From Lunularia cruciata (lineage: Eukaryota > Streptophyta > Marchantiopsida > Lunulariales > Lunulariaceae): 64,000 nucleotides of DNA. The notes below the pieces were generated by a model. It searched no databases and had not been told where the DNA came from. It saw only the letters and a program-made list of their open reading frames with translations. The stretch lies in assembly GCA_948567375.1 (NCBI GenBank), contig OX419761.1, positions 21,118,243 to 21,182,242 of the forward strand. The letters are read 5' to 3'. Below, piece by piece: positions 2,695-58,739 of the stretch. Made by a program: the position numbers and the translations under genes. The stretch's first letter is position 1. Every line of letters begins with the position of its first letter.

Positions 2695-3091
2695 TGTATT
2701 GTGGTGCCCACATTTTTTGTTTTTTTTTTTTTTAGAATAAAGGAGAAGAAGTGTATAGAGAAGTCGGATTGTGCCTGTATGGCCGAAGAAGGCAAAGAAA
2801 AGAGTCTTCGGGTTGAAACCCGAAGTAAAGTGACTTCGGGTCATAAGGCAAAGTACTCAGAAATGCCATGTCAACATACAATGCAAAGTAAATTGTCTTT
2901 GGATCGGGGGGAGCTCAACCCGAGGTGAAGACAGTCTAACAACCTTTCATTGGGGCAAGAAATTCAAGAAGGGGCTGTTTCAAAACTGGTGGCTCATACG
3001 CGCGAAGGTTGATTGACAATGACAGGTGCATGCCAGAGGTGTGATTTCTTGGTGGAAACTTGAAGTGACGGAAGACAAAGAAGCACAACTC

Positions 3092-3098
3092 TATAAAA
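3092..3098 (+). promoter_or_regulatory. TATA box upstream of the GL-a ORF
   Basis: TATAAAA in the context 'ctctataaaa'. It is conserved at the same place in GL-b (minus strand, about 26062-26068) and GL-c (55398-55404). It lies only 20 bases before the first ATG at 3118. Transcription would then begin at or after that ATG, which favours a later start such as the Met codon at 3256. Confidence 0.5.
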
Positions 3099-3117
3099 TC
3101 AAAACTGCAACGACGAA

Positions 3118-5691
3118 ATGTTGAGCAATTTTCCTTTGCCGTTGAGGAGTCGTCTTGCAGGTGATCGGGGAAAGGGAAATAGAGTTGGGCTCGTGTTAGT
3201 GCGTAAGGAAGAAGTCGCGAGAGTGAAATTGAGAGAAAGTGAGAAAACAAAAGAGATGGGAGGAGGGAAGAAGAACTCCAAATTTGTAGTGAGAAATCAT
3301 GCGATTTGGAGATTAGATGTAGTAGCAAGGATTGAAGTCTTGAGCCAACTTTGGATCACCTTTCTGGCATGGAACTGGAACGTAAGTTTTCCAAGATTCA
3401 TGACAGAGATCATTGAGAGTAAGTGTCTTGATGGACCTAAGGAGGAAGGGAAGAGAGGAAATCCGGCTTGCTGGACAGAGTTGGATTGGAGACTTGTACT
3501 TGGGAAGGAGGCGGGCTTGGAGCAAGGAGCCACGTTCTTTGGAAAAGGAGAGATAGCCCAAGAAACTCAAGAGGTGAGAGATGCCTTCTTGTCGAAGAGA
3601 ACAAAGAATGGGTACAAGGTAGAAAGTTACAAAGACCATGCCAAGAGAGGAATTGTGAGTGCTTTGATGGAAATCCTGAAGCCGGAGAGAACAACATATG
3701 TGATGAAACACCAAGCGGTGTTCTTTCACAAATTGTTTGCAGAAGAACCAGTTAATTGGGCGAGGTGTTTTCATGGGAGAACAAGGCAGATGGTGTGGAA
3801 TCTACGGGAGAAGTTGCCTCCACATTACATTGTACCATTTGCAGCGCACTTCTACCTCGGGCATAATTTGCTGAACTTGGCAGAGCGGAATCGGATAGTG
3901 TCGCACTTCCATCCTGATGTGCAAAAGGAGGTCGATGTCGAGGAGTAGCAATACATTCTCCAAATCCGGAGCACGGACGACTACTATGCAAAAACAGGGA
4001 AAAATGTGGAGGTCGTAGTGAGTAGCCCGACGAAGAAGAGGACTCGGCAAGCAGAAGCCAAAGAAAACAAGAAACATCGGAAGATGCAAAGAAGTAACCC
4101 AAGGCGAGGAATTGTGGTAATTGAGTCAGAAGATGAAGACTCAGAAGGCGAGGCCAAGCTCAAGATGGAGGACTCAGAACATGAGGAAGAACTTGAGTTG
4201 ACACTGTAGAGCGGAGATACAAGCAGTGATAGTGAGGACGGTGGAGAGATGACCTTGGCGCCAGTGGCTGAAGAATACAAAGAAGAAGTGCAAGCCGAGG
4301 TAGAAGCCAAAGACAATACATCATTGGAAGACAAAGTACCGGTGCTAGAGGAGAAGAAGATTGCAGTGCAGCGAGGAGTTTGCTTCTTATGTAAGGCAAA
4401 GTGTGAGGCAGGACCGAGTCGAGTGAAGGCAGAGGTAGAAGAGAGCTCGGGCAGTGAAGCATCAATCCCGATATGAAGACTCCAGAGAAGAAGGCGAGTA
4501 TCAGGAGAACACAAGGAGAAAAGAGAGACCACTCCACGGGAGGAAGAAGTTGCTAGTGATGGAGTGGAGTACCTAGGAGAAGTAGTGTGCCCGCTGTTGG
4601 TGAAGTTGGAGCAGAAGAAGAAGGAGATGCAGTCAACTTGTCCCGAGGTAAAGACGGTATTGCAGGTGGTAGCAAGATTAGAAGAAGAGAACTCGGAGTT
4701 GAAGAGGAGTGTAACCCGAGGTAAGGAGGAGAGAGAAGTACTGCGAGCGGAGGTAGTAGAGAGAAGTCAGGTAATTGAAGACCTGAAGAGGGAAGTGAGC
4801 TATTGAGAGGATCTTGCAAGGAAGAGTGATATCGCAAGAGAGAGACAGGTAGCCGAATACGAAATCTTGAAGCAACAGTTTGCTGATTCAAGGGTAGAGC
4901 TTATTCATGCTATGGCGAGGGTAGCAGCAAAGGATCAAGAGCTCGATAGAGTGATGGAGAGTATGGAGGAGAAGAAGCAACTCTGGCAATGAGAGTTGGC
5001 TGCAAGATATAGAGAAGAAGAAAGATTACGAGAGTTACTTCGTAATCATGAAGAGAAGGTTGTCCAAAAAGAGAAGGAGAAGGAGTCGGTGAAAGCCAAA
5101 TTCAAGGAAAAATTGGCGATGTACAGAGAGGAATGGCTTGTAGATTGGGAATGAGAAAGGAAGACAAGATTGGAGCCATTGCAAGAGATAGTCCTCAGAG
5201 TAAACGCAATGTTAAGTACAGAGGCCAGCGTTCAAATTGAAGAAGCGCGACTACACAAATTGAAGTTGTTGGTGCAGGAGACAAGGCGAAGACAAGCGAA
5301 GGACACTGAGATGAACGCCTTGTTAATAAAATTAAGAGCTTGTGTAGATAGAAAGGTTTTGGAGGTAGAGGATAACATTTCCATTAGATTAGACTTAGTG
5401 AAAGTAGAGCTAGAAAAACTTTGGAGGGATATTAAAGCAAAACCCAAAGTAGATAACATAGGAGTGCAAATGTCTTTGGAGTTGCCATCAGAGACATTAA
5501 AGAAGAGTGGGTCAAGAGATAAGGAGTTAGAAAGATTACCCACTAGTGGAATTTCAGATCAAGAAAGAGAATTGCTTGATCTGGTAGAAGAAGTAGAAGA
5601 TCTAAAACCCGAGGACAGAGTAGTAGGAAGTAAGATTACTTTGGGTTTGGGTTTGAAAGCCGAAGAAGAAGTAGACATCGGATCAGAGTAG
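3118..5691 (+). pseudogene. GL-a ORF: unknown N-terminal domain plus long coiled coil
   Basis: A single frame of 858 codons with no frameshift but six in-frame stops (TAG at 3946 and 4207; TGA at 4474, 4804, 4990 and 5152). At least four are C-to-T changes judged from GL-b or GL-c, which have CAG, CAA or CGA there. Part 1 (about codons 1-280) is a globular domain with motifs 'DWRLVLGKEAG', 'ERTTYVMKHQAVFFHKLF', 'RQMVWNLR' and 'HFHPDVQKE'. Part 2 (codons 290-470) is basic and then acidic, with Ser/Glu-rich stretches. Part 3 (codons 480-858) is a Lys/Glu/Leu-rich coiled coil ending in an acidic tail. I do not recognise the family. Part 1 may be a distant relative of the putative plant transposon domain of some retroelement ORFs, but this is a guess. 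Start codon uncertain. Confidence 0.75.
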
Positions 5692-5808
5692 TGACCGATT
5701 TGAGATTTGAAGGGGCAGATATGAAGAGGTGCATTGTCATTTTGGATTTGCAAGTTAGAACAATTGTTGTAGAAACGGTATAGTTGTTAGAACTGTCAAT
5801 TGCTTCAC

Positions 5809-5873
5809 TATTTAAGAGTGGCATTCACAGGAAATTGTTGTTTAGTGCTCATTATTTCTGAGAATAGATAAAG
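5809..5873 (+). promoter_or_regulatory. TATA-like and poly(A)-like signals near the GL-a 3' end
   Basis: TATTTAA at 5809-5815 is followed by AGATAAAG at 5866-5873, downstream of the ORF stop and about 0.65 kb before the end of the unit. The same TATTTAAG context recurs in GL-b. GL-d and GL-e have true TATAAAA followed by AATAAA in the corresponding place. This spacing is what a U3/R boundary of an LTR looks like. Confidence 0.4.
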
Positions 5874-6491
5874 CAAAGTGCTGTGAAGCAGTGCTTGTCG
5901 CTTGAGCTTGATTCCGAGTATCAGCTTTGCAATTGTGTTTGTGAGTGTTTGGAGAAATTTGAAGTGCAAGTCAGAGTGTTTGTTGGGTGTCGGATTCCAC
6001 AGCCTTGATCTTCATTCTGTGTGTTTGATCCTGAGTGAAGTGCCATCAAAGCAATGCCTTGATAGATGTGAGAAGAATTGTAGTGTTGGTAGTATTTTTC
6101 ATTTGTGATTGCAATGCAAAGTTGATGTGAAGCAATTTTGATCAAGGAATTTGTGCCTTCAGTGGAGGGGTAGAACACAATTCTGAGGCAAAGTCGTTTT
6201 GCAGTGAAGTGCCATTTTTGGGAGAGCCTGAATCATCACAATCAAGATTGTTTCGAAAGAATTGAAGGATTTGTGATTAAGGAGTGTGAATTCATGACAA
6301 GGTTGCGAGTCAGTGCTTCTTACTCTCTTCTGGGTGTGGTTTCTACCTGAGAGATTAAAGAAGAACTCAAGAAGAACTACATGTTACTATTTGACTTTGT
6401 ATTTGGACATTTCTGATTTGTATCTCTGCGGGGACAAACTTTACTTACCCGATTACCGCAAAAGTGATATTTTCCGGGTTGTCACATGTAT

Positions 6492-7704: not shown

Positions 7705-8254
7705 ATGGCAGCAATGCCCAAGGTTATCATTGCTATGCAACAACAAATTGAGCACCTTACTTGATTATTAGATGAAAGAGTTCGTCAATGACAAGAGCAC
7801 ATAGAGAGAGTAGTAGTTCAAGAACAAGAAGACCAAATCCAATTCCCAAAACCAAGGTTTTTGAAGGCAAGAATCTCCCAAGTGCAGTGGAGAATTTTAT
7901 GTTTGACTATGAACATTATTTTGAACCTACCAATCTTAAAGATGAACAAAAACAAATCTCTTGGCTTCCAATCAATTGGATGTAATAAAAAAGTTATGGT
8001 GTCAATTTTGAGTGGAGCAAGCTAAACATCAAATTTTTGCACCAATCTTGACATGGGTAAAATTCAAGAGTGCAATAATTGGTCAATTCTATGCTATAAA
8101 TACCACACAAGCTGCACAAGATAGGTTGGCAGAGTTGAAGCAGATTGGCTTTGTAAGAAGTTATATCATGTGATTTTAGAACACCATCATGCAAATTCTA
8201 CATACCGGAAGGTGAAGTTATATATCAATTTATGAGAGGCTTGAATTCACAAAC
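7705..8254 (+). pseudogene. Element A gag (truncated, broken)
   Basis: Starts at ATG 7705 ('MAAMPKVIIAMQQQIEHL'). A frameshift moves the reading to a second frame with 'KTKVFEGKNLPSAVENF', 'DYEHYFEPTNLKDEQK' and later a 'QFMRGLN' stretch, the usual course of a gypsy gag capsid region. Element E gag (29985-30417) has the same order. The gene is cut at 8254 by the 5' LTR of element B1. No zinc knuckle remains. Confidence 0.65.
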
Positions 8255-8823
8255 TATAATACAAGTAGCTAGACATGTTATCTAAAGGTGAAAATTGGCT
8301 TGGTAACATCTAGAAGGATGTTGTGTACAATGAGCTAGGCAGATTAGATAGAGGTATCACCAAAAGAGTACTTCTACTAATAGGGCAAAAGTCCAAAATA
8401 GCTCACAAACTTTAAAGATATTTTTGGAGGCCTAAATGGATGAATTAGGACTCAAAAGGTTCCCCCCTCAAGAGAAAAAGGCTTGCCTTTTGCCTCCCAT
8501 GATTTGTCTCATGAAGAGCTTTCCAATGGTACCTTACCCATGTGATTTTGAGCTTCCTATAAGAAGATTCTCTAAATATTCCCTTTGGTCTAGACCAACT
8601 AGATAGGACAAGGATTGACATGTCACCCATCCAAACAAATAATCCAAGGATGATCTTGCTGAAAAGTCACCAATCCATGTATATGATCCAAGGGTGGAGC
8701 TTCCTTTGAGGGGATCCTCTTTCCTATAATACAAAGAAGGTGCTCCTTTGGGGTATTTGAGGATTGAGTGTTTAATGTGTTTTTTCTCTCTTGAAGATTT
8801 CTCTTGTCTTTGGAGTATTACAA
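8255..8823 (+). repeat. Element B1 5' LTR (Gyp3, short form)
   Basis: 569 bp, starting TATAATAC (family consensus TGTAATACC) and ending in 'tattaca'. Unlike the 762-bp LTR of element D it has only one copy of the 'tggtaacatct' block in U3. A 'ctataata' TATA-like box at about 8734 corresponds to 'tatataataaaga' of the other copies. Confidence 0.8.
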
Positions 8824-8824
8824 T

Positions 8825-8836
8825 GGTATTAGAACG
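8825..8836 (+). promoter_or_regulatory. Element B1 primer binding site
   Basis: TGGTATTAGAAC, two mismatches (both G/A or C/T type) from the initiator-Met site, one base after the LTR. Element D has the perfect form at 53878-53889. Confidence 0.75.
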
Positions 8837-9182
8837 GGTGTCTTAAGTAATCTGAGGTGGAGAACATAGTGCAATTGCTAGACTTGGGAAGTGCTTTAGA
8901 GAGCGGATGGGATAGATGCACTAGGAGGAAAATTTCTTGCACCTAGCTTCCCATTCTTGAATCCATTCCACATCAAGATTATGTACATCCAGCATGAGAA
9001 AATGAGAGTATCATTAGTTTATCACTTTGGAGCATAATTCATGGACATAGTGATGGATTCACCAAATCCAATGATTCTACCTGTAGTGGTATACAACAGA
9101 GAGTAAGATTTGACAATCTGCATTCTATTATGATTTTATGGATCTAAAATATACCAAATCCTCAACATGCAAGTAGAAATCC

Positions 9183-9362
9183 ATGCAAGTAGAAATCCAT
9201 TATGTAGTTAGACCAAAAGTGATGTTTAGGGATTTTTTAGTCCGCAATTTTGGTGAGGAATATTATCAACAAGTGATAGCCTTTGAGGTCCCAATGGTTG
9301 TCCCCATAGTTTGTGCACACTCTCAAGTGATCATTCTAACTCTCTATTCAATCAAGAAGTAG
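9183..9362 (+). CDS. Leader ORF upstream of gag, 59 aa
   Basis: An intact frame ATG to TAG in the leader between primer site and gag. Its core (starting 'VEIHYVVRPKV', ending 'FEVPMVVPIV', 41 residues) differs from the ORF at 54223-54405 in element D at only five positions, nearly all conservative (Met/Ile, Leu/Val, Arg/Lys, Val/Ile). The motif 'NFGEEYYQQVIAF' is identical. The gag gene 30 bases downstream is full of stops, so the survival of this frame in both copies stands out. Just upstream is an 18-bp tandem duplication ('catgcaagtagaaatc'). Function unknown; it could be a coding relic fused to an older gag N-terminus or a true short peptide. No signal peptide or membrane segment is evident. 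Confidence 0.5.
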   Translation: MQVEIHYVVRPKVMFRDFLVRNFGEEYYQQVIAFEVPMVVPIVCAHSQVIILTLYSIKK

Positions 9363-9391
9363 CAAGTGAACACAGGTCATGTGTAGGAATC

Positions 9392-10415
9392 ATGGATCCG
9401 TAGTTACAAGAGTTGATGCAAGGAATGCAAGAGATGTTGAATGAGTTTTGAGAAATCAAGATGGCCATGGAGGAATTGCAAAATCAAGTATGTGGTGTCA
9501 AGAAGGATCAAGTAATGCAAGAAGGAGAGCCGTCTCAACAACTAGCACTAGCAATCAAAGCACCTGGAGAGTGATGCATGCCAATGACACCGACTCCAAT
9601 CAACAACCAAGCCACATTGTTACTACAAATGAAAAAGACATGCAACACAAGCCTTACAAGGGACGGTGTTCTATGGGAGTAGTGGAAAATTAGATTTCAA
9701 GAATGAATGGATACCTTCAATTGTTCACAATGGAGATCAGTGATCATTCTATAGGTGTATTTGCATGTAGGTACTTGATCAATAAGGCACTCACATGGTA
9801 TGATACTTGGAACCAATCATTTTTGATAGAAGGAAGAGAGGTCACTTGGATAGCTATGCAAGAAGGGCTGCTCAAGAATTTCCAATCTATGGATTCCATA
9901 CAAATGGCCCAAACTCGACTATTGGGGTTGAAGCAAAAGAATAGCATACAAGAATATGTGGAGGCATTTTTGGATCTACAGGTTGCGATAACCAATATGA
10001 GTCGAGTTGAAGCTCTTCATAATTTCAAGAGAGGATTAGAAGAGAGGATTTGCTAATTAATGGTGCAAAATCCTCATATTGTTTTTGAAGCCATTGCTTA
10101 CGCCCAAAGAATAGCAGGTGCACTTGGAGGAGGTGAAGCAATAAAATTGATGAAAAACTATTGGGCCAAGACATACCATTTTGGTGGACCATCACCTATG
10201 GAATTTGGCAACATTTGGTTTTGAGATAGAGGAGCAAGACCTCTCCAAGGAGAATAGGGATGGGTTGAAGAAAGGAGAGAAGGAACAAGGAGAAGGGGCT
10301 CAAACAAAACAACAATGATGTTACAATTGTGGTTGAATTGTGCACATAGCCATCAATTGTCATCTTAGAGGCCCTTGGCCTCCATAAAAGCAATCTTTGA
10401 ACCACATGGAGAGAT
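9392..10415 (+). pseudogene. Element B1 gag with zinc knuckle (broken)
   Basis: Starts at ATG 9392 in the same context as ATG 54453 of element D. TAG is already the fourth codon. The capsid part is open at 9703-10056 ('NKALTWYDTW', 'EYVEAFLDLQVAITNM', 'HNFKRGLEERIC'). A CCHC zinc knuckle, Cys-x2-Cys-x4-His-x4-Cys, lies at 10319-10360 with one stop in it (CGA or similar to TGA after 'CYNCG'). Gag packages the element's RNA into particles. Confidence 0.75.
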
Positions 10416-10439
10416 GAATTGAAGAGGAAGATATGAAAA

Positions 10440-10910
10440 TTGCATCAAAAACAAAGATTGCTAGTAAATGTACCTTGTGGCTTTACTTGCTTGGTGAAGA
10501 AGAGTGAAAGCAGGGGGAGGAAGAGGACGAGTGTGCAAAGAAGGAAGAAGATAAACACACAATTAATTGTTGTAAATGGAATGCTAGAAGGCAATCTGGT
10601 GAGAATGTTGATAGACCATGGGGCAACAAAGAATTTATTTTCTTGCTCTATTGCAATAAGTTTGGGGATGGAACTAGAGAAGGATGAGAAGAATAAAGTA
10701 GAGTTACCCAATGGTCAGACAAAGAGGATTGAGTCATTACCTAGAAAGGTTATACTCTCTATAAGAGGGTAACAAGAAGCAATCCAATTGCAAGTGATAC
10801 AACTAGATCATTATCATGCAATCTTAGGTATGCCATGGATGGAGCATTACAACCCCATGGTGGATTAGAGAAAGAAAGTAGTGAAAACTAGCAAATAGAA
10901 GATCTTTAGA
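10440..10910 (+). pseudogene. Element B1 protease
   Basis: The frame at 10440-10772 contains 'VVNGMLEGNLVRMLIDHGATKNLF', a retropepsin active-site loop in which the family D-S/T-G-A becomes D-H-G-A. The second conserved part is in another frame: 'YHAILGMPWMEHYNPMV' near 10810-10865, the usual 'D.ILGMPWL..HNP' block of gypsy proteases. It cleaves the Gag-Pol polyprotein in intact elements. A TAA and a frameshift separate the parts. Confidence 0.7.
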
Positions 10911-10990
10911 ATAAAAGGAAGATCAAAAGGCAAGAGTTACCTCTGTATATCATAAAGACCACATTTATTGGTAAAACATAAAGATGTTTC

Positions 10991-15248: not shown

Positions 15249-15255
15249 AGAGCAG

Positions 15256-22671: not shown

Positions 22672-25600
22672 TGTGACAACCCGGCAAATATCACTTTTGC
22701 GGTAATCGGGTGAGTAAAGTTTGTTCTTGCAGAGATACGAGTCAGAATTGGTCAAATACAAAGCAAAGTAACAATTGTAGTTCTTCTTGGTTGCATCTTT
22801 AATCTCTCAGGTAGAAACCACACCCAGAAGAGAGTAACAAGCACTGATTCGTAGTCTTGTCACGAATTCACACTCCTTTATCACAACTCCATCAAATCTT
22901 TCCAAACAATTTTGATTGTGATGATTCAGGCTCTCCCAAAAAATGGCACTTCACTGCAAAACGACTTTGCCTCAGAATTGTGTTCCACTTCTCCACTGAA
23001 AGCACAACTTCCTCAATCAAAATTGCTTCACATCAACCTCGCACTACACTCACAAATGCAGAATAGTACCAACACTACAATTCCTCTCAGATTTGTCAAG
23101 GCATTGCTTTGATTGCACTTCACTCAGGATCAAACAGACAAAATGAAGATCAAGGCTGTGGAATCCAACATCCAACAAGCACACTGACTTGCACTTTGAA
23201 TTTCTCTACACACTCACAAACATAGACACAAAGTTGATACTCGGAATCAAGCTCAAGCGACGAGCATTGCTTCTGAACACTTTGCTTTATCTATTCTCAG
23301 AAATTATGAGCACTGAACAACAATTCTCTGCAAATGCCACTCTTAAATAGTGAACAAATCGACAGTTCTAACAACTATACTATTCTACAACAACTTTTCT
23401 AACCTGCAAATCCAAAATAACAATGCACCTCTTCATATCTGCCTCTTCAAATCTCAAATTTGTTACTACTCTGATCCGATGTCTACTTCGTCATCAATGT
23501 TCAAACCCAAACCTGAAGTAATTTTACTTCCTACTACTCTATCCTTGGGTTTTGTATTTTCTACTTCTTCTACCAGATCCAACAATTCTCTTTCTTGATC
23601 TGAAATTGCACTAGTGGGTAATCTATCTAACTCCTTATCTCCCGACCCACTCTTCTCTAATGTCTCCACTAGTAACTTTGAAGACATTTGTACTCCTATG
23701 TTATCTACTTTGGGTTTTGCTCTAACATCCTTTCAAAGCTTTTCTATCTCTATTTTCACTAAGTCTAATCTAATTGAAATGTTATCCTCTACCTCTAAAA
23801 TCTTTCTATCTACACAAGTTCTGAGACTAATTAAAAAGGCATTCAAATCAGTATCTTTTGCCTGTCTTTGCCTCATCTCCTGCACCAACAATTTCAACTT
23901 GTGCAATCTTGTTTCTTCAATCCAAACGCTGGCCTCTGTACTCAACATTGCGTTCATCTTGAGGACTATCTCCTTCAATAGCTCCAATCTCATCTTTCTC
24001 TCTTGCTCTTGATCTGCAAGCCAGTCCTCCCTGTACATAGCCAACTCCTCTTCAAACTTGGCTTTCACCGTCTCCTTCTCCTTCTCCTTCTGTACAACCT
24101 TCTCTTCTTGATTACGAAGTAACTCTCATAATAGATCTTCTTCTTGGTATCATGCCGCCACCTCTCTTTGCCAGAGTTGCTTCTTCTCCTTGACACTCTC
24201 CATCACCCTATTGAGCTCTTGATCCTTCGTTGCTACTCTCGCCATAGCATGGATTACTTCTACTCTTGAATCAGCAAACTGTTGCTTCAAGATTTCATAC
24301 TCCGCTACTTGTCTCTTCCTTGCTATGTCACTCTTCTTCACAAGATCCTCTTGATAACTTACTTCTCTCTTTAGGTCTTTGATTACCTGACTTCTCACCA
24401 CTGCCTCCGCTCGTAGCACTTCCCTTTCCTCCTCACCTCGGGTTATACTCTTCTTCAACTTCGAGTTTTCTTCTTCTAATCTCACCAACACCTGCAATAT
24501 AGTTTTTAACTCCGGACATGTCAAGTGCATTTCCTTCTTCTTGTACTCCAACTTCACCAACAATGGGCACACCACCTCTCGCAGGTACTCCACTCCATTG
24601 CTCAGGATTACTTCTTCTGGTGTGGCCACTTCTCTTCACACTTCCTGTTCATCCGATACTTGCCTTCTCCTCTGCAGTCTCCGTATCGGAATTGAAGCCT
24701 CACTTCCTGAGCTTTCACTTACCTCTTCCTTTGCCTTACTCGGCCCCGATTCACACTTCTCCTTACGTCTAGAGCAAACTCCTTGCTGCACTACGATCTT
24801 CTTCTCTTTGGGCACAGTTACTTTGTCTTCCAGTTGTGTGTTGTCTTCGGCTTCCATCTCTGCTTGAACTTCTTCTTCGTATTTTTCAGCTGCTGGTGTT
24901 GATGTCATGTCTCCCCCTTCATCACTATTGCTACTTGTTTCTCCACTCTGCAGCATTAGCTCAAGCTCCTCCTTGTGTTCCGAGTCTTCAGTTTTTAGCT
25001 CGGCATCTCCTTCTAAGTTTTCGTCCTCCAACTTGATTACTACCATACCTCACCTTGGGTTGACTCTCTGCATCTTGCAAGGTTTCTTTGTGTCTTTGGC
25101 GTCATCTTGCCGACCCCTCTTCTTCGTAGTCGGGGTACTCACTGTGACCTCTATGTTCTTCCCCGTCTTCCCGTAGTAGTCATCAGTGCTCCAGATTTGC
25201 AAGATGTATTGCTGCTCCTTGACGTCGACCTCCTTTTGCACATCAGGATGGAAGTGCGACACCATCCGAGTCCGCTCTGCCAAGTTCAGCAAGTTAAGCC
25301 CAAGGTAGAAGTGTGCTGCAAACGGCACGATATAGTGTGGAGGCGACTTATCCCACAAATTCCACACCATTTGCCTCGTTCTCTTGTGAAAACACCTCGC
25401 CCAATTGATTGGTTCTCCTGCAAAAAGCTTGTGAAAGAACACCGCTTGGTGTTTCATCACATATGTGGTTTGCTCCGGCTTCAGGATAGCCATTATTGCA
25501 CTCACGATCCCTCTCTTCACAGGGTCTTTGTAACTCTCAACCTTATACCCGTTCTTCGTCCTCTTTGATAAGAAGGCATCCCTCACCTCCTGGGTCTCTT

Positions 25601-26456
25601 GAGCTATCTCTCCTTTTGCCAAGAACGTAGCTCCCTACTCCGAGCCTGCTTCCTTCTCGAGTACGAGTCTCCAATCTGACTTTGTCTAGCGAGTTGGATT
25701 TCCTCTCTTCCCTTCTTCCTTTGGTCCATCAAGACACTTGCTCTCGATGATTTTTGTCATGAATCCTGGAAAGCTTACATTCCAGTTCCATGCCAGAAAT
25801 GTGATCCAAAGTCGGCTCAAGACTTCAATCCTTGTATTACATCTAACCTCCGAATTGCATGATTTCTCATTGCAAATTTGGAGTTCTTCTTTCCTCCTCC
25901 CATCTCTTCTACCTTCTCACTCTCTCTCGATTTCACTCTCGCAACTTCTCCCTTGCGCACTAACACAATTCCAACTCTACTTCCCTTCCCACGATCACCT
26001 GCAAGATGACTTCTCAACGGCAAAGGAAAATTACTCAACATTTCATCGTTGCAAGTTCAATTTTTATAGAGTTGCGTTTCTTTGTCTTCCATCACTTCAA
26101 GTTTCTAGCAAGAAATCACACCTCCGGCATGCACCTATCACTATCAATCAACCTTTGCACGTATGGGCCGCCGGTTTTTGAATGGCCCCTTCTTGAATTT
26201 CTTGCCGTGATGAAAGGTGGTTAGACTATCTTCGCCTTGGGTTGAGCTCTCCCCGATACAAAGACAATTTACTTTGGGTTGTGTGCTGACAAGGCATTTT
26301 TGAGTACTTTGCCTTATGCCCCAAAGTCACTTTACTTTGGGTTTCATCCCGAAGACTCTTTTCTTCACCTTCTTTGGCCATACAGGCGTAATACGACTTC
26401 TCTATATACTTCTTTTTCCTTTATTTTGAAAAAAAACAAAAAATGTGGGCACCACA
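22672..26456 (-). mobile_element. GL-b: giant LTR-like unit with an internal ORF
   Basis: 3785 bp. On the minus strand it starts TGTGGTGCCC and ends GGTTGTCACA. It is flanked by an exact duplication, CTACC at 22667-22671 and 26457-26461. It is a full-length relative of GL-a (two bases shorter), in the opposite orientation, with the same poly-T tract near the start, TATA box, ORF and 3' non-coding tail. It is inserted in the RT gene of element E. Confidence 0.85.
23466..26041 (-). pseudogene. GL-b ORF: unknown domain plus coiled coil
   Basis: Same protein as GL-a. The first frame starts at 26041 ('MLSNFPLPLRSHLAGDRGKG') and loses its phase by a one-base deletion near 25830. The domain with 'TTYVMKHQAVFFHKLFAGEP' is open at 25050-25622, and the acidic linker is open at 24636-25046. 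The two are in one frame, separated by a single TGA where GL-a has CGA (at about 25050). The coiled coil is at 23733-24629 and the acidic tail at 23466-23687. Residue differences from GL-a are often conservative. Family not recognised. Confidence 0.75.
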
Positions 26457-30417: not shown

Positions 30418-31259
30418 TGCTACTACTACTTTGTCAAAATACTTACTTACAAATATATAGGTAAACATATAAATGAAATGTATTTGCTCTTTGTAAGTTA
30501 TAGTCTAAAAGATCAATAGTTCATTGGACAAAGTGATTGTATTGAAAATAATTTGACCAAAGTATGAAATAATGCTTTTGTAGTACATAGAAAATCCCAA
30601 TGGTTTGGGTGAAATGGATTTTGTGGTTTGTGGAGACCCATCTTTGCATTATTCGTACATTTTCTTTTAATTATGGACGGTTAACAAGTGGTTAAGACTT
30701 GGACATAAGATTGCACTACTTAGAAGGTTATCATGAGAAGGACAAGAAGATGATGTACAATAAAAACCATGATTCATCCACATTCAAGGATCACAGGGAC
30801 AAAGATTCTTGTTATTATGTATGTAATGGTTATGATTATGCTCATCATCTTTATAGTCTTTGTGGTCACAATATTGGTGAACTTAAGCATCATGATCATG
30901 ATCCTTACATTGGGGATTAGAGTTTTTAGTATGATGACTCTTAGGATGAGGTTTGTGAATGATTTATGCCTTATCAAACAATGTTGCCATGAGATATCAT
31001 TGGCTGATTCATTCAATCTTGGAGATTTTAAATGGCTTCAATGCACCACAACCTTAACAAGGAACAAAAATGATGAACATTTGCATCTGCCAAGATGCTT
31101 GCATGCATGAACAACAATGCTTCACCAAAGGTGTATACACTAAATTCCAAAATGGTTGGATCTAAGCTACAAATTCATGGTCTTGGTTTGTGCAACAACT
31201 TGATTTTGACTTGACAACTCTACAAAATCATGCACATAGTCTTTGGCAAATTTTTTGAC

Positions 31260-33910
31260 AAACATCAAGAGCTAAGAGAAAAATTGAGAGATTTGATGGG
31301 TGGGTTTAGGGTAGCTCATAATTTTTCTAAGAGGGATTGTGAAAAAATACAACAGTGCTTTAGCCAAGAAGACATATAGTTCCACCAAAAGTGATTCTAA
31401 AATCACATGGAGTGAATAAGTGGCAACTCCACTACAAGGATAAGTATATCTATGGTAAGAGACTAGAATTCTTGCTATAGAATTGGAGATTTAGTTATGT
31501 AGATATGCTATTAGAAATCAAAGATAACAAAGATCCAATTGTAGAATTGATATGGGATAATGTCTTTGCTTGGACAAAAGCTCATTGGAGGAAAGTGCTT
31601 AAGCAAGCAATAGGATCTCCTCCTAATGCAATGACAATAGAGACCACATGGGCTTGTCCTAAGAGAAAAATAAACAAATAAATTGAGGCAATTTTTGCCA
31701 AGAAGAAGTCAAGCAATGGATGATGAATTGGGTGTATAAAAGAGCTATTGCAAAGAGCTATTGTGGAGGCAGTCATGAAGCTTTCCAACTCCAAGAAAAC
31801 AACCTATGCCAACATGAGCCATGTATTTTTCATCCATTATCTTCAGAAAGGATGACTTGGTAATTGGTCATAATGTTCTATCTATGAGTTTGTGAGATGT
31901 GTGCAAACATGAACAAGGAAAGTGGCTTCACATTTATGTCACTTTTTGTGATACTCTTTTAATAAGCAATGAAATAACTCAAGAAGGAGGATCAGAAGAA
32001 GTTCCTCATGAAGTTTTATCATAAGGATTACTTTCATATCCATCCAAAAGTGTGCAACAAATATGAGAAGTTGAGGATGGCCAACAAAAAGTATGCAAAG
32101 TCAAATAACAAGTATGTGCATGTGAAAGATGAGTACAACATCCTAAGATACTTGTTAAAGAGGAAGGAGTTTGCATCATGACCAAAGGTGCAAGCAAAAA
32201 GGGAAAAAAGGCATGGGTAATCAATAACTCCTTTAAAGAAGACAAGATGAAGATAATCATGATGTAGTAGAAGAAGATATCATGATGGAAGAAAACATTA
32301 TTGTGGTAGAAGAAAATGTTGTGATGGAAAGAAATCACAAAGACAAAAAGGAGGAAGAAGGTGTTATCAAGACACAAAAATATCATTGAAAAGAAGAAGT
32401 AATGATGTAGTATGAAGTGGAAAGGTGAGCCCAAGAGAAGCAAGTGAGGAATCCTTCACTCAGATTTAGCTTTCTTTTGACTCAAAAGTTATGGCAATTA
32501 CCCAAAAAGATAAGGTGCAATCAACACTACCATAAGACTAGTAGATCAATTGCCAAGGAAGAAGAAGTATATCCTTCACAAGCAAAGCAAAGTCTCCATG
32601 ATGAACCAACCTCCTATGGTGGTGATACCTCCCCAAACAAACAAAGAAGTATCTTCTCCAACCGACCTACAAGTAGAATGCAACAATTAGGCTAGACCAT
32701 CAATAACAAAGACAAGTAATGATGTCCAAACCAAGGAAGTAGAGAACATAAAAGAAGACCAAAGACCAAAGGTAGGAGAAGAACTCAAGTTCAATGATAT
32801 TGTGAGAGATATTGTCAAAGGCAAGGAGAAAGGACCCAAAAGGAAAAGGAAAGAGAAGCAAGATATCAAAGGCTAAAGAGGAAGAATCTACCCAAGTGCA
32901 TATACAAGAGAGAGTAGGAGATCTGAAAGTAGCCAAAGATGCAGCCATCAGTCATGAGGAAGGAGAAGAAGAGGTACACATCTTAGTCTTCATGGTATGT
33001 TATAGAGAGAAGGGACAATCACAAGAAGGAGAACCGGCCCAATCAATACCAATTTTGTGAGAAGTGATCCACACAATAAGACCAACACTTCACAACTTCA
33101 AAAAATTATTTCTATACTATTGATAACTAGATAAGAATATCACAAATCACATGAATTTGGTTGCCCGTCTACATTGGATTGCTTAATTGGCCACCATAAA
33201 GAAGGCAAGAGCTTGTGAGGAGCTCAAAAGAGAAAGGAGCAACTCCAATTAAAAGAAGAAACTTGTCTTGAATTCAAGTAAACAATGGAGAAGTGGAAGA
33301 AGTTAGTGCAAGAAAGTTGGGAGAAGTACAATGGAGATCTAAGGAGAGTTCATGCCCAAGTGAAAGTCATAAATCAATATCAAGAACAAGCAACAAAGAT
33401 TCAAACATAATTAACACAAAGTCATAATTAATGGCCTTGTGCTTGAGGTGAAGAAGTGGTTGTGCTGCACATAGGGGTGGAGCAAGCCATATCAAGATTT
33501 TTGCTAATGCAATTACCCATGACAACTACAAGGATTTTGCAAAAAAATTTGTGGAGGAGCTCACAAAGTAGGTAGATCAGCAAGAGTAGAAAGAAGAACT
33601 CATATGTGTCTAAGATAGACAAGAGTTGCAAGAGGAGATACAAGCCATACATTTGAACTTGGAAGAGAGCAGCCCAAGTGCTAATGATGATGGAATCTAT
33701 AGCAATAGAAATGATCAAGCATGAAAAGAGGCTTAACATGACCCTACCACTCCAAGTCATGTAACAAGACCTAAAGATGCAAGTTCACATGTTAGAGGCA
33801 AAGTTGTACAACAATGAACAACTTGAGTACCTATTCATGCATCTCAAAGGTCACACAAACCAAAACTTTGAGGATATATTAAATAGAATATTGGTCAATT
33901 TGTGGATTAC
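31260..33910 (+). pseudogene. GL-d ORF: relative of the GL-a protein
   Basis: Broken, but collinear with the GL-a protein. 'AHWRKVLKQAIG' corresponds to 'LDWRLVLGKEAG'. 'AIVEAVMKLSNSKKTTYANMSHVFF' corresponds to 'GIVSALMEILKPERTTYVMKHQAVFF' at almost the same spacing. 'DYFHIHPKVCNKYEK' corresponds to 'SHFHPDVQKEVD'. Next comes a Lys/Glu-rich part (32160-33060), a coiled coil ('EKWKKLVQESWEKYNGDLRR', 33280 on) and a C-terminal block 'LEYLFMHLKGHTNQNFEDIL' (33820-33880), which GL-e also has. Many stops and shifts. Function unknown. The shared spacing over the whole length is what convinces me, not any single motif. Confidence 0.6.
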
Positions 33911-34214
33911 AAGATGAATGTTGAGTTTCTCCTATGGATGGTGAAATGTGAAGGAAATTCTGCACAATAGTTCTTCAAGATAGTATATAGATTTGTGAAA
34001 TCAAAAATTGTAAAGTAGTCTAAGTATTAATGATCATTTGCCTAGTAGGATGAAGATGAAAAATTTTCCAAAGATCTTTGTGACACATTTTTTTGGGTGG
34101 TCAATTTGTAGTGAAGACCATCATAGTCAATTGCCAAAGAAATAGTTAGCAGAAAGACCAAATTTAGAAGTTGATTTAGCATTGCAATTTAGGCAATCTT
34201 TAATTGAGTTAGCT

Positions 34215-34322
34215 TATAAAATGGTAAGGATCCTAATCATGTAATTGAGATAGGATAAGGATCTTAAGCAAAGGATGGTAGGTTAGCTAAGAGGTTATGG
34301 AGAAACCTACTAAACCAATAAA
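34215..34322 (+). promoter_or_regulatory. TATA box and poly(A) signal near the GL-d 3' end
   Basis: TATAAAA at 34215-34221 and AATAAA at 34317-34322, after the ORF and about 0.5 kb before the unit's end. The same order and similar spacing are seen in GL-e (50715-50775). This is LTR-like U3/R organisation. Confidence 0.45.
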
Positions 34323-34474
34323 GCTCTATGGGGACGAGTAAGAATTGCATAAAGAGCTTCAACCCAATGTAAAATATATTCATTTGTTCATTTATACAAT
34401 GAGTCAATTGTTGGCTCAGTAAGCATTATATGCACAAGATCTCTAAAATTTAATGTGTATGAGTTTGCATTTTG

Positions 34475-34594
34475 TGTGATTGGTTATGTACTTTGATGAG
34501 TAATGGTGAAGAATTTTGCAGTAGGATCAATCTATGTGATTGGTTTATGTACTTGGATGAGTAGTGGTGAGAAATATTGTAGTAGGATCATAAG
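34475..34594 (+). repeat. 60-bp tandem duplication in the GL-d tail
   Basis: Two 60-bp units beginning 'tgtgattggtt.atgtactt.gatgagta.tggtga' at 34475 and 34535, with several mismatches. GL-e has only one such unit. Confidence 0.7.
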
Positions 34595-34803
34595 TGCTTG
34601 AGTACCATGAGGTGTATTTGCACTTGATTAGAAAGTAGGATTTCAAAGAGATTTGAAGAGGTTGTCTAATGCATGGAGCATGCATGCATAATGCAACCTT
34701 TATTTGGAGCACTAAAAGTACCATGCTAACAAAAAAATCAAGCATCACAATTGATCCATGACAGTTGCATGTCTACATCTTCTAAGAAAGGGTGTGCATA
34801 GTT

Positions 34804-35325
34804 ACTATGGTTGTAATCACTAGAGCAATATGACCCTTATGGTGAAATCTACCTAAGAAGTAGAAATAAACATCGGTGGAGGCTTGATGCTCATGACTCT
34901 AGCAACCTTTGGTGTTCATGATAAATCATGATATTCACAAAGTTTAAATCATTAACAAAGAGCAAGTTTTAAAAACCATTGGCCAAGTTATGCCTTCATT
35001 GCAAAGTGATTACAAAGCAAAGTGACCTTTGTGATGGATGAACCATCACCCTCATGAATAATTTGGATCAGATCCTTAGTGAATATGATTTCAGTTTTCC
35101 CTTTTCCATAATGTGCTAAAGTATTGACACTACCTTGTTTTGGGAATGATTTAGCTCCGAGGTTAAATACTAAGCAATAGAAAATGAACCATTATGACAT
35201 ATTTTCTTCATCTTCTAGTCATTTCCAACTTGTATCTCCATAGGAATTATACATTTTTATTATTTTACTGTATTTTGGTTGACATTGAGTCGCTATATGG
35301 TCCTTTGATTCCATCCATCCCATTT
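34804..35325 (-). other. Element E leader
   Basis: Non-coding on both strands as far as I can see. By position it is the leader between E's primer site and gag. The stretch next to the primer site (35300-35325, minus strand 'atgggatggatggaat') matches element A just after its own primer site ('aggatggatggaat', 7453-7466). Confidence 0.55.
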
Positions 35326-54405: not shown

Positions 54406-55397
54406 TCATATTGACTCTATAATTGAAGTAGATATTGAGTGTTGTAAGAACCATGGATATGCAATTACAAGAGTTGGTGCAAGGAATGCAAGAGATGTTG
54501 AATGAATTTTGAGAGATTAAGATGACCATGGAGACATTACAAAGTCAAGTGTAGATCCTCAAGAATGATCAAGCAATGCAAGAAGAGTCGTCTCAAAACC
54601 CAATACCTACAATTGAAGTACTTGGAGAAGCACCCGTGCCTACAAACCCTATCAACAATGAAGCCACATTGCTACTCCGGATGAAGAAAACATGCAACAT
54701 CAAGCCTTACAAGGGGCAGCGTACGATAGGAGTAGTGGAAAATTGGATCTTGAGAATGAATTGATATTTTGAATGTTCTCATCAGAGGTCACGGAGCATG
54801 CTGCAAGCATGTTTGCATATGGGTACTTGACTGATAAAGCCCTCATATGGTACAATGCTTTTGTAATAATCCATGTTGGCAGAGAGAAGGAAGGTCACGT
54901 GGACAACAATGCAAGAAGGATTGCTAAAGAATTTCCAATCGGTGGATTTGTGCAGATGGCCCAAATCCGACTATAGGGATTGAGAAAAAAGAACAACGTA
55001 CAAGAGTATTGTGGTACCCACATTTTTTGTTTTTTTTTCCAAAATGGAGAAGAAGAAGTGTATAGAGAAGTCGGATTGCACCTGTATGGCCAAAGAAGGC
55101 AAAGAAAAGCATCTTTGGGATGAAACCCGAGGTAACGTGGCTTCGGGTCATAAGGTGAAGTACTAGAACTTGCCCTATCAGCAAACAACCCAAAGTAAGA
55201 AGTCTTCATATCGGAGGGAGCTCAACCCGAGGTGAAGATAGTGTAACAACCTTTCTTTGGAGCGAGAAATTCAAGAAAGGACCGTTCAAAACTGGCAGTC
55301 ATACGCGTGAAGTACAATTAACAATGATAGGCGCATGCAAGAGGTGTGATTTCTTGGTAGAAACTCGAATTGAAGAGAGACGAAGAAGGCACGACTC

Positions 55398-55404
55398 TAT
55401 AAAA
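55398..55404 (+). promoter_or_regulatory. TATA box upstream of the GL-c ORF
   Basis: TATAAAA, same context and position as 3092-3098. Confidence 0.5.
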
Positions 55405-55424
55405 ATTGGGCTAACAACAAAGCA

Positions 55425-57468
55425 ATGTCGAGCAATTTTCCTTCGCTGTTGAGAAGTCATCTTGCAGGAGATCGTGGGAAGGGAAGTAGAGTTGAAGACG
55501 CGCTAGTGTGTAGAGGAGAATTCGAGAGAGTTAAACCGAGAGACAGTGAGGAAGCAGGAAAGATAGGAGGTGGAAAGAAGAACTCTGAATTCATAGTGAG
55601 AAATCATGCAATTTAAAGGTTAGATGTGATCATGCTAATTGAAGTCTTGAGCCGACTTTGGATCACCTTCTTGGCGTGGAACTAGAACGTAAGTTTTCCA
55701 AGTAGCAACAATACATTCTTCAAATCTGAAGCATTGATGATTACTACACGCAAACAGGCAAGAGTGCGGAGGTAGAAGTGAGTACTCCAAAGTCAAAGAA
55801 GCGGAGTCGACAAGGAGAAGGCAAAGACATAGAGAAGACAAGACCTCGGAAGACCAAGAGAGGAAACCCAAGGAAAGGCATTGTGGTGATTGTGTCATCA
55901 AAGGAAGACTCGGAAGGCAAAGCCGAGTGCAAGTCCGAAGACTCAAAACACGAGGAGGAACCGGAGCTCACGCTACAAAGTGGGGATACGAGTAGCAATA
56001 ATGATGAAGGTGGGGAGATGACGTCAGTACCTACTGCAAAAGAAGAAGAAGTTTGGGTGGAGCTCAAGGAAGAAAATAACATGAAGTTGGAGGACAAGGT
56101 ACCCAAGCCAAAGGAGAAGAAGATTACAATTTAGAGGGGAGTTTGGTCGAGACACAAGGCAAAGTGTGAAGCGGGTCCAAGCAAGGCAAGGGAAGAGGAG
56201 AATGCTAGCTCGAGGAGTTAAGCATCTATTCCGATACGACGACAGAGAAGATACGACTACAAAGAAGAAGGTGAGTATCGAGAGAAGAAGAGGTAAAGAA
56301 GGAGATCACTCCGTAGGTGGAAGTACGTGCAAGTGATGGAGTGGAGTACCTGAGAGAAATTGTGTGCCCATTGTCATTGAAATTAGAGCACAAGAAGAAA
56401 GAGATGCAGTCGACATGTCCGGAGGTGAAGACTGTGTTGCAGGTTTTGGCAAGACTGGAAGAAGAGAACTTGGAGTTGAAGAAGAGTATAATCTGAGGCA
56501 AGAAGGAAAGAGAAGTATTGCGAGGGGATGCAGTAGTGCAGTGTCAAGTTATTGAGGACTTGAAGAGAGAAGCGAGGTATCGAGAGGAACTTGTGAAGAA
56601 GAGTGGCATAGCAAGGGAGAGACAAGTAGCAGAGTACAAACTCTTGAAGCAACAATTTGCTGATTCAAGATTGGAAGTTATCTATGCTATGGCGAGGGTA
56701 GCAGAGAAGGAACAAGAACTCAATAGAGTGATGGAGAGTGTAGAAGAGAAGAAGCAACTGTGGCAACAGGAGTTGACAGTGAGATATAGGGAGGAAGAGC
56801 GATTACAAGAGTTACTTCGTAATCAGGAGGAGAAGATTGTGCAAAAGGAGAAGGAGAAGGAAGCTGTGAAAGTCAAGTTCAAGGTGGAATTGGCAATGTA
56901 CCAAGAAGATTGGCTTGCAGATCGGGAGAGTGAAAGGAAGATGAAATTAGAGCCATTGAAGGAGATTGTAATCAGGATGAATGCAATGCTAAGTATAGAG
57001 GCCAATGTTCATATTGAAAAGACGAGGCTGCACAAGTTGACGTTGTTGGTGCAGGAGACGAGGAGGAGACATGCAAAGGATACAGACTTGAATGCTCTAT
57101 TAATTAGTCTCAGAACTTGGGTGGATAGGAAGATATTGGAAGTCGAAGACAATATCATGATTAGATTAGATCTAGTGAAGTTAGAGATAGATAAACTTTG
57201 GAAAGATGTTAGAGCAAAACCCGAAGTAGATGAAGTAGGAGTGCAAATGTCTTTGGAGTTACCATTGGAGACATTAGAGAAGAGTGGGTCAGTAGATAAA
57301 GAGTTAGATAGATTACCCACTAATGAAATGTCAGATCAAGAAAGAGAATTGTTAGATCTGGTCGAAGATGTTGGAGTTGTGAAACCCAAGGATAGAGTAG
57401 TAGGAAGTAAAGTTACTTCGGGTTTGGGTTTGAAAGCCGAAGAAGAAGTAGACATTGGATTGGATTAG
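55425..57468 (+). pseudogene. GL-c ORF, N-terminal domain deleted, coiled coil open
   Basis: 'MSSNFPSLLRSHLAGDRGKG' starts at 55425 and stops after 63 codons. At about 55705 the sequence jumps from 'gtaagttttccaag' to 'tagcaacaatac', removing the block with the TTY and VFF motifs. The basic and acidic linker is open at 55778-56134. The coiled coil and acidic tail are fully open for 316 codons at 56518-57468, ending 'AEEEVDIGLD' against 'AEEEVDIGSE' in GL-a. This long open coil, in a copy that lost its N-terminal domain, deserves a selection test. Confidence 0.75.
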
Positions 57469-58739
57469 TAACCAATTGGAGATTTGAATAGGCAGATATG
57501 AAGAGGTGCATTGTCATTTCAGATCTGCAGGTTTGTAGAGTCATAAGGAAGAGGTACATTAGGAAGATAATTGTCGATTGCTTCACTACTTAAGAGTGGC
57601 ATTTGCAGCTTTATGTTGTTTAGTGCTCACTATTTCTGAGAATAGATAAAGCAAAGTGCTGTGAAGTAGTGCTTGTCGTTTAAGCTTGATTCCGAGTATC
57701 AACTTTGTGCTTGTGTTTGTGAGTGTTGGGAGAATTTTGAAGTGCAAGTCAGTGTGTGTTGGATGTTGGATTCCGTAGCCTTGATCTTCATTCTGTGTGT
57801 TTGATCTTGAGTGAAATGCAATCAAAGCAATGCCTTGACAGATCTGAGAGGAATTGTAGTGTTGGTAGTATTTTGCATTTGTGAGTGCAGTGCGAGGTTG
57901 ATGTGAAGCAATTTTGATCGAGGAAGTTGTGCATTCAGTGGAGGGGTGGAACACAATTCTGAGGCAAAGTCGTTTTGCAGTGAAGTGCCGTTTTTGGGAG
58001 AGCTTGAATCATCACAATCCAGATTTTTTGGAAAGATTTGATGGAGTTGTGATTAGGGTGTGTTAATTCGTGACAAGACTGCGAGTCAGTGCTTGTTACT
58101 CTCTTCTGGGTGTGGTTTCTACTTGAGAGATTAAAGACACAATCAAGAAGAACTACATTGTTATTGTTTGACTTTGTATTTGACCAATTCTGAATCGTAT
58201 CTCTACGGGAACAAACTTTACTTACCTGATTACCACAAAAGTGACATTTGCTGGGTTGTCACAAGTATGTAGAGGCATTTTTGGATTACAAGTTGCAATA
58301 ACCAACATGAGTCCAATAGAGGCTCTCAACAATTTCAAATGAGGTTTGAAGGAGCGGATTTGCCAAGAAGTCATGGTGCAAAATCCTTTGATGGTCTTTT
58401 GAGATCGAGGAGCACGACCGCTTCAAGGAGAGCATGGACGGGTACAAGAACAAAGAGATGGAGTCCCACAAGGAGAAGGAACTCAAGGAGAACAACATCG
58501 TTGTTATAATTGTGGCTGTATTGGGCACATATCTACCAACTATCATGATTGTTACCCTAGAGGCCCTTGGTCTTCATACAAGTGATCTTTGAACAACATG
58601 GAGGGGCAAATTGAAGAGAAGGAGGTGGAAATCACTTCGGAAAATGAAGATTGCCAATAAATGTACCTTGTGGCCTTACTGGCTCAATAAGGAAGTAGAG
58701 AAGCAAGGGAAGGAAGAAGACAAATGTGCAAAGGTCTTA

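What the first reader, a model, noticed from the sequence alone, without database searches (positions are those of the whole stretch)
2700..6486. ORF-carrying unit with retroviral-type ends but no terminal repeats, in three full copies
GL-a (2700-6486), GL-b (22672-26456) and GL-c (55010-58263) each begin TGTGG and end TCACA. They are flanked by three different exact 5-bp duplications: TGTAT, CTACC and AGTAT. GL-a and GL-b are 3787 and 3785 bp. The ends of each unit are unrelated to each other, so they are not ordinary LTR elements, and they lack terminal inverted repeats beyond a few bases. Each contains an ORF of about 858 codons (shortened in GL-c) behind a TATA box. The best reading is a solo giant LTR whose U3 encodes a protein, in the manner of the LTR-encoded gene of mouse mammary tumour virus. 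The alternative is a passenger mobilised by a gypsy integrase.
Basis: partly seen in the sequence, partly recalled or inferred. Interest (0 to 1): 0.88.

Follow-up and report, generated by a model that had tools for sequence, protein, structure and literature searches.

The report
Giant retrotransposon LTRs carrying a gene
In a liverwort-like plant genome, a jumping gene of the Ty3/gypsy kind has very long end repeats (about 3.8 kb), and the repeats examined hold what was once a protein gene with its own likely start signal, so a single leftover repeat can be a gene-sized unit rather than an inert scar.

Summary
GL-a, -b and -c are solo LTRs, about 3.78 kb (3.25 kb in c, after a deletion), with exact 5-bp duplications. 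In the same genome the unit occurs as direct pairs. Two pairs were read: each has a duplication, primer site, gag-pol, polypurine tract and second copy, so this is a Ty3/gypsy element. The pol stop codon lies in the polypurine tract, so a third gene can only lie inside the LTR. The LTR frame is broken in all 19 copies aligned, but dN/dS is 0.16-0.18 across three subfamily pairs, and transversions alone show the codon bias. The gene most likely starts at ATG 3256 (811 codons, not 858), about 165 nt after a TATA box; a second TATA-like site follows its stop. Window 30629-35297 is probably a solo LTR of an older sister family with a 27%-identical homologue. Pattern counts: 11,285 LTR ends, 1,663 LTR-primer junctions. 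No protein relative was found outside this genome. Best reading: a sense accessory gene enclosed in U3, like the LTR gene of mouse mammary tumour virus by position only. Promoter use, U3/R borders and function are inferred.

The parts
2700..6486 (+). GL-a: solo LTR, 3787 bp, TGTGG...TCACA
   Evidence: same unit occurs as LTR pairs around gag-pol
2695..2699 (.). target duplication TGTAT, 5' copy (3' copy 6487-6491)
3092..3099 (+). TATA box 1 (TATAAAAT in GL-a), proposed promoter of the LTR gene; TATAAA in 16 of 19 aligned copies
   Evidence: use as promoter is inferred
3256..5691 (+). likely LTR gene (811 codons plus stop) in GL-a, broken by six internal stops; C-terminal part a long coiled coil
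   Evidence: dN/dS 0.165 a-b, counted over frame 3118-5691; start; heptad signal in a 250-aa piece of L031
5809..5816 (+). TATA-like box 2 (TATTTAAG in 11 of 19 copies, TACTTAAG in 7, TGTTTAAG in 1), proposed promoter of the genomic RNA
   Evidence: inferred
5840..5899 (+). putative R with AATAGATAAA polyadenylation-like motif (16 of 19 copies)
   Evidence: inferred
5900..6486 (+). putative U5; non-coding but 88-91% identical among a, b and c
6487..6491 (.). target duplication TGTAT, 3' copy
22672..26456 (-). GL-b: solo LTR, 3785 bp, reverse orientation; duplications CTACC at 22667-22671 and 26457-26461
23466..25903 (-). LTR gene in GL-b, frameshifted and with stops
55010..58263 (+). GL-c: solo LTR, 3254 bp, nested in another repeat; duplications AGTAT at 55005-55009 and 58264-58268
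   Evidence: empty site in L060
55563..57468 (+). LTR gene in GL-c, with a 547-bp deletion and stops
30629..35297 (+). probable decayed solo LTR of an older sister family (TGTGGAGACC...GCTATA), flanks TGGTT/TGGTC
   Evidence: a second copy (L058/L059) has GTGAT on both sides
31463..31876 (+). homologue of the N-terminal part of the LTR protein inside the older LTR (27% identity, E 2e-8)
   Evidence: old copies L058 and L060 also match

Best explanation
GL units are solo LTRs of a high-copy Ty3/gypsy retrotransposon whose 3.8-kb LTR encloses a complete sense gene of about 811 codons. Order in a full element: LTR[TATA1, accessory gene, TATA2, R, U5]-PBS-gag-PR-RT-RH-INT-PPT-LTR[same]. SHOWN: the LTR pairs, primer site, PPT, pol domains, duplications, absence of room for a third gene between pol and the PPT, past purifying selection on the LTR frame. 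LIKELY: an old homologue inside a second, decayed LTR family. INFERRED: TATA1 drives a roughly 2.8-kb monocistronic mRNA ending at a poly(A) site in R, and TATA2 drives the genomic RNA. The gene therefore sits in U3, past the PPT, is copied into both LTRs at each reverse transcription, and is kept whole when recombination between LTRs deletes gag-pol. MOST LIKELY ROLE (weak): an oligomerising coiled-coil accessory protein that acts in the element's own cycle, in the way proposed for internal plant aORF proteins such as Grande GENE23. Selection on it implies that it mattered to copies that transposed.
For: LTR pairs at 94.8% identity (94.9 and 95.2% in the global alignments) flanking an interior of about 6.16 kb, duplications ATATG and ATCCT, PBS and PPT at the proper places. 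Domains above cut-off: zinc knuckle, RVT_1, two RNase H families, Integrase_H2C2; rve below its cut-off, Gag and protease only weak. Pol stop TGA lies inside the PPT. dN/dS 0.165, 0.182, 0.161; transversions by codon position 26/22/68 (a-b, p=2e-8), 39/31/82 (a-c, p=1e-7), 39/26/72 (b-c, p=2e-6), over frame 3118-5691. The 3' non-coding part shows no comparable rhythm. The gene region is near full length (2425-2459 bp, 2436 in GL-a) in 18 of 19 aligned copies; the exception is GL-c. Whole-genome counts: 11,285 LTR ends and 1,663 LTR-PBS junctions, reversed-pattern controls 0. In 40-bp bins, identity of a and b to c is 0.56-0.80 in the 120 bp before about 5859 and 0.82-0.97 after it. Older LTR family carrying a homologue.
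Against: No RNA data: both promoters and the R border are read from sequence only. The conservation step is absent in a-b, and the 40 bp just after the stop codon are also conserved (0.93). TATA2 reads TACTTAAG in 7 and TGTTTAAG in 1 of 19 copies. No intact LTR gene in 19 aligned copies; longest open stretch 596 codons. The start is uncertain: both ATGs are kept in 17 of 19 copies, and a-b shows third-position excess before 3256 too. No homologue, fold or domain: protein searches with the 596-codon natural segment gave none, Pfam/NCBIfam/PDB nothing above cut-off, structure model pLDDT 36.9. No full-length element was read for the older family. Its ends were set by eye at edges of homology with the flanks in view, its last bases read TA rather than CA, its start reads TACAG in the second copy, and the window copy's flanks agree in only 4 of 5 bases.
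Confidence: 0.82

Rival explanations
1. The gene lies in R-U5, not U3: TATA1 is the promoter of the genomic RNA, so the LTR gene is the first cistron of that RNA (an ORF0-like gene upstream of gag), and gag-pol is reached by splicing or re-initiation.
For: TATA1 is the cleaner TATA box: TATAAA in 16 of 19 copies, TATTTAAG for TATA2 in 11 of 19. Rice Retrosat2 has an ORF0 upstream of gag-pol (PMC3485330, passages).
Against: A second TATA-like site, an AATAGATAAA motif and a conserved leader-like block follow the ORF. R would have to be very long or the 5' poly(A) site ignored.
Confidence: 0.2
2. A passenger or non-autonomous cargo unit mobilised by a gypsy integrase, not an LTR.
For: Single units with 5-bp duplications are common.
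Against: Direct pairs flank PBS, gag-pol and PPT; the unit adjoins PBS or PPT in 7 of 17 delimited copies and the PBS at 1,663 junctions genome-wide.
Confidence: 0.02
3. The LTR frame is not a gene: a purine-rich sequence gives long open frames by chance.
For: No intact copy seen among 19; composition is biased. Private frameshifts occur in b, L061, L062 and (14 bp) c.
Against: Third-position excess also in transversions; dN/dS 0.16-0.18; the one indel shared by several copies within the frame is 6 bases; no comparable rhythm in the 3' non-coding part; a protein-level homologue in another LTR family.
Confidence: 0.03
4. A non-autonomous LARD-like element with long LTRs and a non-coding interior.
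For: Long LTRs, many solo copies.
Against: The interior carries RT, RNase H, integrase zinc-binding and zinc-knuckle domains.
Confidence: 0.02

Closest known systems
Ty3/gypsy LTR retrotransposons using a tRNA-Asp primer (Athila/Calypso/Diaspora)
   Same: TG...CA LTRs, PBS a few bases past the LTR (7 here, 5 in Diaspora) with a tRNA-Asp-like match (match recalled), gag-pol interior, long LTRs (PMC1142308, passages)
   Different: The Diaspora passages describe no gene in the LTR, and an env-like gene, where present in that lineage, is placed in the interior. Here the interior ends at pol and the third gene is in the LTR. Lineage not settled by a tree.
Plant LTR-retrotransposon additional ORFs (aORFs: Grande GENE23, RIRE2, Retand, PvRetro13, Athila env-like)
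   Same: Extra ORF in most copies, often between pol and the 3' LTR, no known homologue; Grande GENE23 has its own promoter; PvRetro13's has an SMC-type domain (PMC7264820, parts 1-2 of 3)
   Different: Those the review describes are in the internal region; Grande-type ones are antisense. Here the ORF is sense and wholly inside the LTR.
Rice Retrosat2/RIRE3/RIRE8/FRetro3
   Same: LTRs of about 3 kb or more plus an extra fast-evolving ORF of unknown function (PMC3485330, passages)
   Different: [quoted passage not shown] no passage I saw puts it inside the LTR.
Mouse mammary tumour virus LTR gene (recalled; paper titles seen)
   Same: A sense gene enclosed in the LTR, downstream of the PPT
   Different: A vertebrate betaretrovirus with a shorter LTR and gene; no sequence relation was tested or claimed.

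Membership tests
LTR retrotransposon, Ty3/gypsy | Two direct LTRs flanking the interior | tested here: met
   C11 and C6 pairs, 94.8% identity
LTR retrotransposon, Ty3/gypsy | TG...CA ends and 5-bp target duplications | tested here: met
   3 of 3 window copies; 2 of 2 full elements read; of 10 solo copies, 5 exact, 4 with 4 of 5 bases, 1 none
LTR retrotransposon, Ty3/gypsy | PBS after 5' LTR and PPT before 3' LTR | tested here: met
LTR retrotransposon, Ty3/gypsy | Pol order RT-RH-INT | tested here: met
   L033:4653-6503: RVT_1, RNase H, Integrase_H2C2 above cut-off in that order; rve below its cut-off
Athila/Tat or chromovirus lineage | Place in RT tree; chromodomain after integrase | tested here: inconclusive
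   No tree built. Integrase C-terminal piece L033:3961-4347 has no Pfam match at E 0.01, so no chromodomain seen; PBS points to the Athila side (recalled match)
Plant aORF | Extra ORF present in most copies and under constraint | tested here: met
   Gene region near full length in 18 of 19 aligned copies, constraint. These 19 are not a random sample of the genome
Plant aORF | Lies in the internal region | tested here: not met
   Gene is at LTR positions 557-2992; no room between pol and PPT
U3-encoded gene (position as in MMTV) | Coding frame between PPT and R | tested here: inconclusive
   Between PPT and putative R by sequence; R not mapped by RNA
U3-encoded gene (position as in MMTV) | Made as a protein from its own mRNA | not testable with these tools
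   No RNA or proteome data held

The most novel reading that the evidence does not exclude
Solo LTRs of this lineage act as stand-alone genes. The accessory protein can be supplied in trans by any of thousands of solo LTRs that keep promoter, frame and poly(A) site after gag-pol is deleted, and this LTR-borne gene has been kept through at least two divergent LTR families: a retrotransposon that moved its accessory gene past the polypurine tract so that recombination cannot remove it.
Probability: 0.3. Interest if true: 0.85.

Novelty: new variant of a known kind. Interest (0 to 1): 0.68.

Why it matters
LTRs are usually treated as regulatory sequence and solo LTRs as scars. Here the LTR holds a once-selected gene, larger than any LTR-borne retroviral gene I can recall, in a plant Ty3/gypsy element with thousands of LTR ends in one genome. 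If expressed, it means that element dosage, silencing escape and gene birth can run through solo LTRs, and that annotation which takes LTRs as non-coding misses a class of element gene. It also offers a clean test of why accessory genes move to the far side of the polypurine tract.

Tried and rejected
Passenger unit, LARD and chance ORF were tested and rejected (see rivals). Reading the ORF from ATG 3118 was set aside: in the two pairs with c, positions 3118-3256 show no codon rhythm (9/13/8 and 7/10/9), though a-b does (3/5/10). I suspected from 11,285 LTR ends against 3,118 matches of an ORF segment that many LTRs lack the gene. Three places from the list were then fetched, the first two of the list and one close pair. 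The first two carry the gene, diverged (75% and 67% protein identity). The third stretch did not reach the gene region; it shows a second LTR end about 1.5 kb on, with another repeat between. The gap is probably third-position divergence, but two copies cannot settle it. Homologue searches, PDB, Pfam/NCBIfam and a structure model (86) gave nothing usable. The homologue search needs shared exact words; one search shows that the same database holds Riccia sorocarpa proteins, so the miss is informative but not proof of absence. Raw third-position excess could reflect deamination: 21 of the 22 codon columns with stops in three or more of up to 32 copies have CAG, CAA, CGA or TGG as majority codon. 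I therefore repeated the test with transversions only. Within the close subfamily the codon signal is weak (0.0625/0.0569/0.081, flanks 0.075 and 0.082), as expected if most of those changes came after insertion. Species: nearest named pol proteins are Riccia sorocarpa, 68-71% in the top four hits. Lunularia cruciata fits by size and gypsy bursts (PMC9985172, abstract and two sections) but is a guess. Phrase hits for 'LTR ORF', 'LTR-encoded protein' and 'within the LTRs' in four papers were opened at the passage and are about other things (PMC4016481, PMC12037069, PMC8278194, PMC13195028).
Full report
WHAT IS THERE. The three units are real and end as described: GL-a 2700-6486 (+), GL-b 22672-26456 (-), GL-c 55010-58263 (+), with exact 5-bp duplications TGTAT, CTACC and AGTAT. 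Pairwise identity is 84.3, 80.5 and 80.1%. GL-c lies inside another repeat. A copy of that repeat elsewhere (L060) carries the undisturbed site with a single AGTAT.

IT IS AN LTR. The window lies in a 565.8-Mb assembly of 74 contigs. The first kilobase of GL-a gave 7,576 candidates, of which 40 were scored and matched at 91-100%. Two same-strand pairs 9.93 and 9.95 kb apart were read in adjacent pieces. Each is a 3.77-3.78-kb LTR, an interior of about 6.16 kb and a second LTR, with 94.8% identity between the LTRs (94.9 and 95.2%). Both have 5-bp duplications (ATATG, ATCCT), a primer site 7 nt past the 5' LTR (TGGCGCCGCTTCCGGGGA in one, TGGTGCCGCTGCCAGGGA in the other; tRNA-Asp-like, recalled) and a polypurine tract against the 3' LTR. 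A third same-strand pair on C2, 16 kb apart, has two further LTR copies between and was not resolved. Interior frames match zinc knuckle, RVT_1, two RNase H families and Integrase_H2C2 above cut-off; rve, Gag and protease are below theirs. The four nearest named relatives of the pol are Riccia sorocarpa proteins, 68-71% identical: the host is liverwort-like.

SOLO AGAINST FULL. Of 20 copies fetched, 3 could not be delimited. Of the other 17, 4 are followed by the primer site, 3 are preceded by the polypurine tract (two of these seven are LTRs of the pairs above) and 10 are solo: 5 with an exact duplication, 4 with 4 of 5 bases, 1 with none. Whole-genome pattern counts at up to 3 mismatches: 11,285 LTR ends and 1,663 LTR-primer junctions, reversed-pattern controls 0. 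Since a full element has two ends, this suggests about five solo LTRs per full element. That is a rough figure, because the two patterns differ in length and stringency and truncated copies count as ends.

THE GENE IN THE LTR. No copy has it intact: GL-a has six in-frame stops, and the longest open stretch in 19 aligned copies (3 of the window, 16 of the genome) is 596 codons. The gene region is 2425-2459 bp in 18 of the 19; GL-c has the deletion. Across subfamilies the frame evolved as a protein. dN/dS is 0.165 (a-b), 0.182 (a-c) and 0.161 (b-c); transversions at positions 1/2/3 are 26/22/68, 39/31/82 and 39/26/72, p=2e-8 to 2e-6 (counted over the frame 3118-5691). Transversions matter because decay here is dominated by deamination-type changes. 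With two further copies (L061, L062), third-position transversions in the 3' part of the frame clearly exceed first-position ones in 7 of 10 pairs; in the three pairs among c, L061 and L062 they do not or barely do (8/4/6, 18/12/20, 10/10/14). The non-coding 3' part shows no comparable rhythm in the ten pairs. The one indel shared by several copies within the frame is 6 bases; the frameshifts seen are private (1 bp in b, L061, L062; 14 bp in c). In the pairs with c the rhythm is absent in 3118-3256 (9/13/8, 7/10/9) and present after it (6/5/14, 6/5/13); the a-b pair is not clear (3/5/10, 5/2/6). Both ATGs are kept in 17 of 19 copies. I therefore take the gene as 811 codons from 3256, with TATA1 (3092; TATAAA in 16 of 19) leaving room for a leader of about 130 nt; a start at 3118 is not excluded.

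ANATOMY. Pol's stop codon is the TGA within TTTGAGGGAAGGGGTA, the polypurine tract itself, in the C6 element; the C11 element has the same tail in another frame of its broken copy. There is no room for a third gene in the interior. After the LTR gene comes TATTTAAG (11 of 19; TACTTAAG in 7, TGTTTAAG in 1), then AATAGATAAA in 16 of 19. In 40-bp bins, identity of a and b to c is 0.56-0.80 in the 120 bp up to about 5859 and 0.82-0.97 after that, but 0.93 right after the stop codon; a-b shows no step. I read this as TATA2, a short R and a U5 of about 590 nt. That is inference; no RNA was available.

AN OLDER FAMILY WITH THE SAME ARRANGEMENT. The N-terminal part of the LTR protein matches window 31463-31876 at 27% identity, E 2e-8. 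The surrounding block aligns with L058/L059 and partly with L060, with edges at 30629 and 35297 in the window. It starts TGTGGAGACC (TACAGAGACC in L058) and ends GCTATA; the window copy has flanks TGGTT/TGGTC and the L058/L059 copy has GTGAT on both sides. I set these ends by eye with the flanks in view. Two other old copies also match the protein (E 9e-8 in L058; 7e-4 in L060). A DNA search with part of the block gave 149 candidates, 40 of them scored, at 67-77% apart from itself. I take it as a decayed solo LTR of a sister family, so the gene has probably been LTR-borne for a long time. No full-length member of that family was read.

WHAT THE PROTEIN MIGHT DO. No homologue outside this genome, domain (11, 71, 72), PDB relative (70) or usable fold (86; pLDDT 36.9) was found. 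A 250-residue piece of the C-terminal half is Glu/Lys/Arg-rich with a 3.5-residue hydrophobic period, that is, coiled coil. Basic runs such as PTKKRTRQ and RLQRRRR could be nuclear signals (by eye). Internal accessory proteins of plant LTR elements have similar traits: nuclear GENE23 with its own promoter in Grande, SMC-like in PvRetro13 (PMC7264820, parts 1 and 2 of 3). An accessory role in the element's own cycle is the best guess.

NOVELTY. The review of plant additional ORFs describes them in the internal region, and a 2025 paper on Retand says the same in the passage seen (PMC11963269). Seven searches on the point (listings seen, 20 of 358 and 40 of 46) did not bring up an LTR-enclosed gene in a plant element; two more were on liverworts (54, 77). 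Passages of four papers with suggestive phrases were about other things. The library is open-licence PMC only, and phrase searches miss much. LTR-enclosed genes are known in retroviruses such as MMTV (recalled). So: a known kind of element, in what looks like a new anatomical variant.

Noticed in passing
window 51302-51522: Fragment about 69% identical to the 3' end of the older LTR family; probably the end of another decayed copy.
   Followed up: partly
window 12915-16093: A different decayed Ty3/gypsy pol (protease, RNase H and integrase domains; RT about 47% identical to the GL pol).
   Followed up: partly
window 8251-12230 and 53115-60448: Two copies of another repeat with RT/RNase H homology; GL-c is inserted in the second.
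   Followed up: partly
window 12461-12992, 16411-18935, 36919-37621, 46351-46907, 48133-48825: A 0.5-0.7-kb repeat family, mostly about 90-98% identical, in both orientations, with a close inverted pair at 18025-18386 and 18575-18935.
   Followed up: no
window 53116-53432, 62090-62404, 17209-17566, 8257-8401, 49046-49205: Sub-repeats of about 157 bp, some in tandem, inside a longer repeat family.
   Followed up: no
G000:C2:53599500-53620000 (L035-L037): Three long LTR copies, one inverted, plus a 1.1-kb LTR part within 20 kb; a nested or rearranged GL locus.
   Followed up: no
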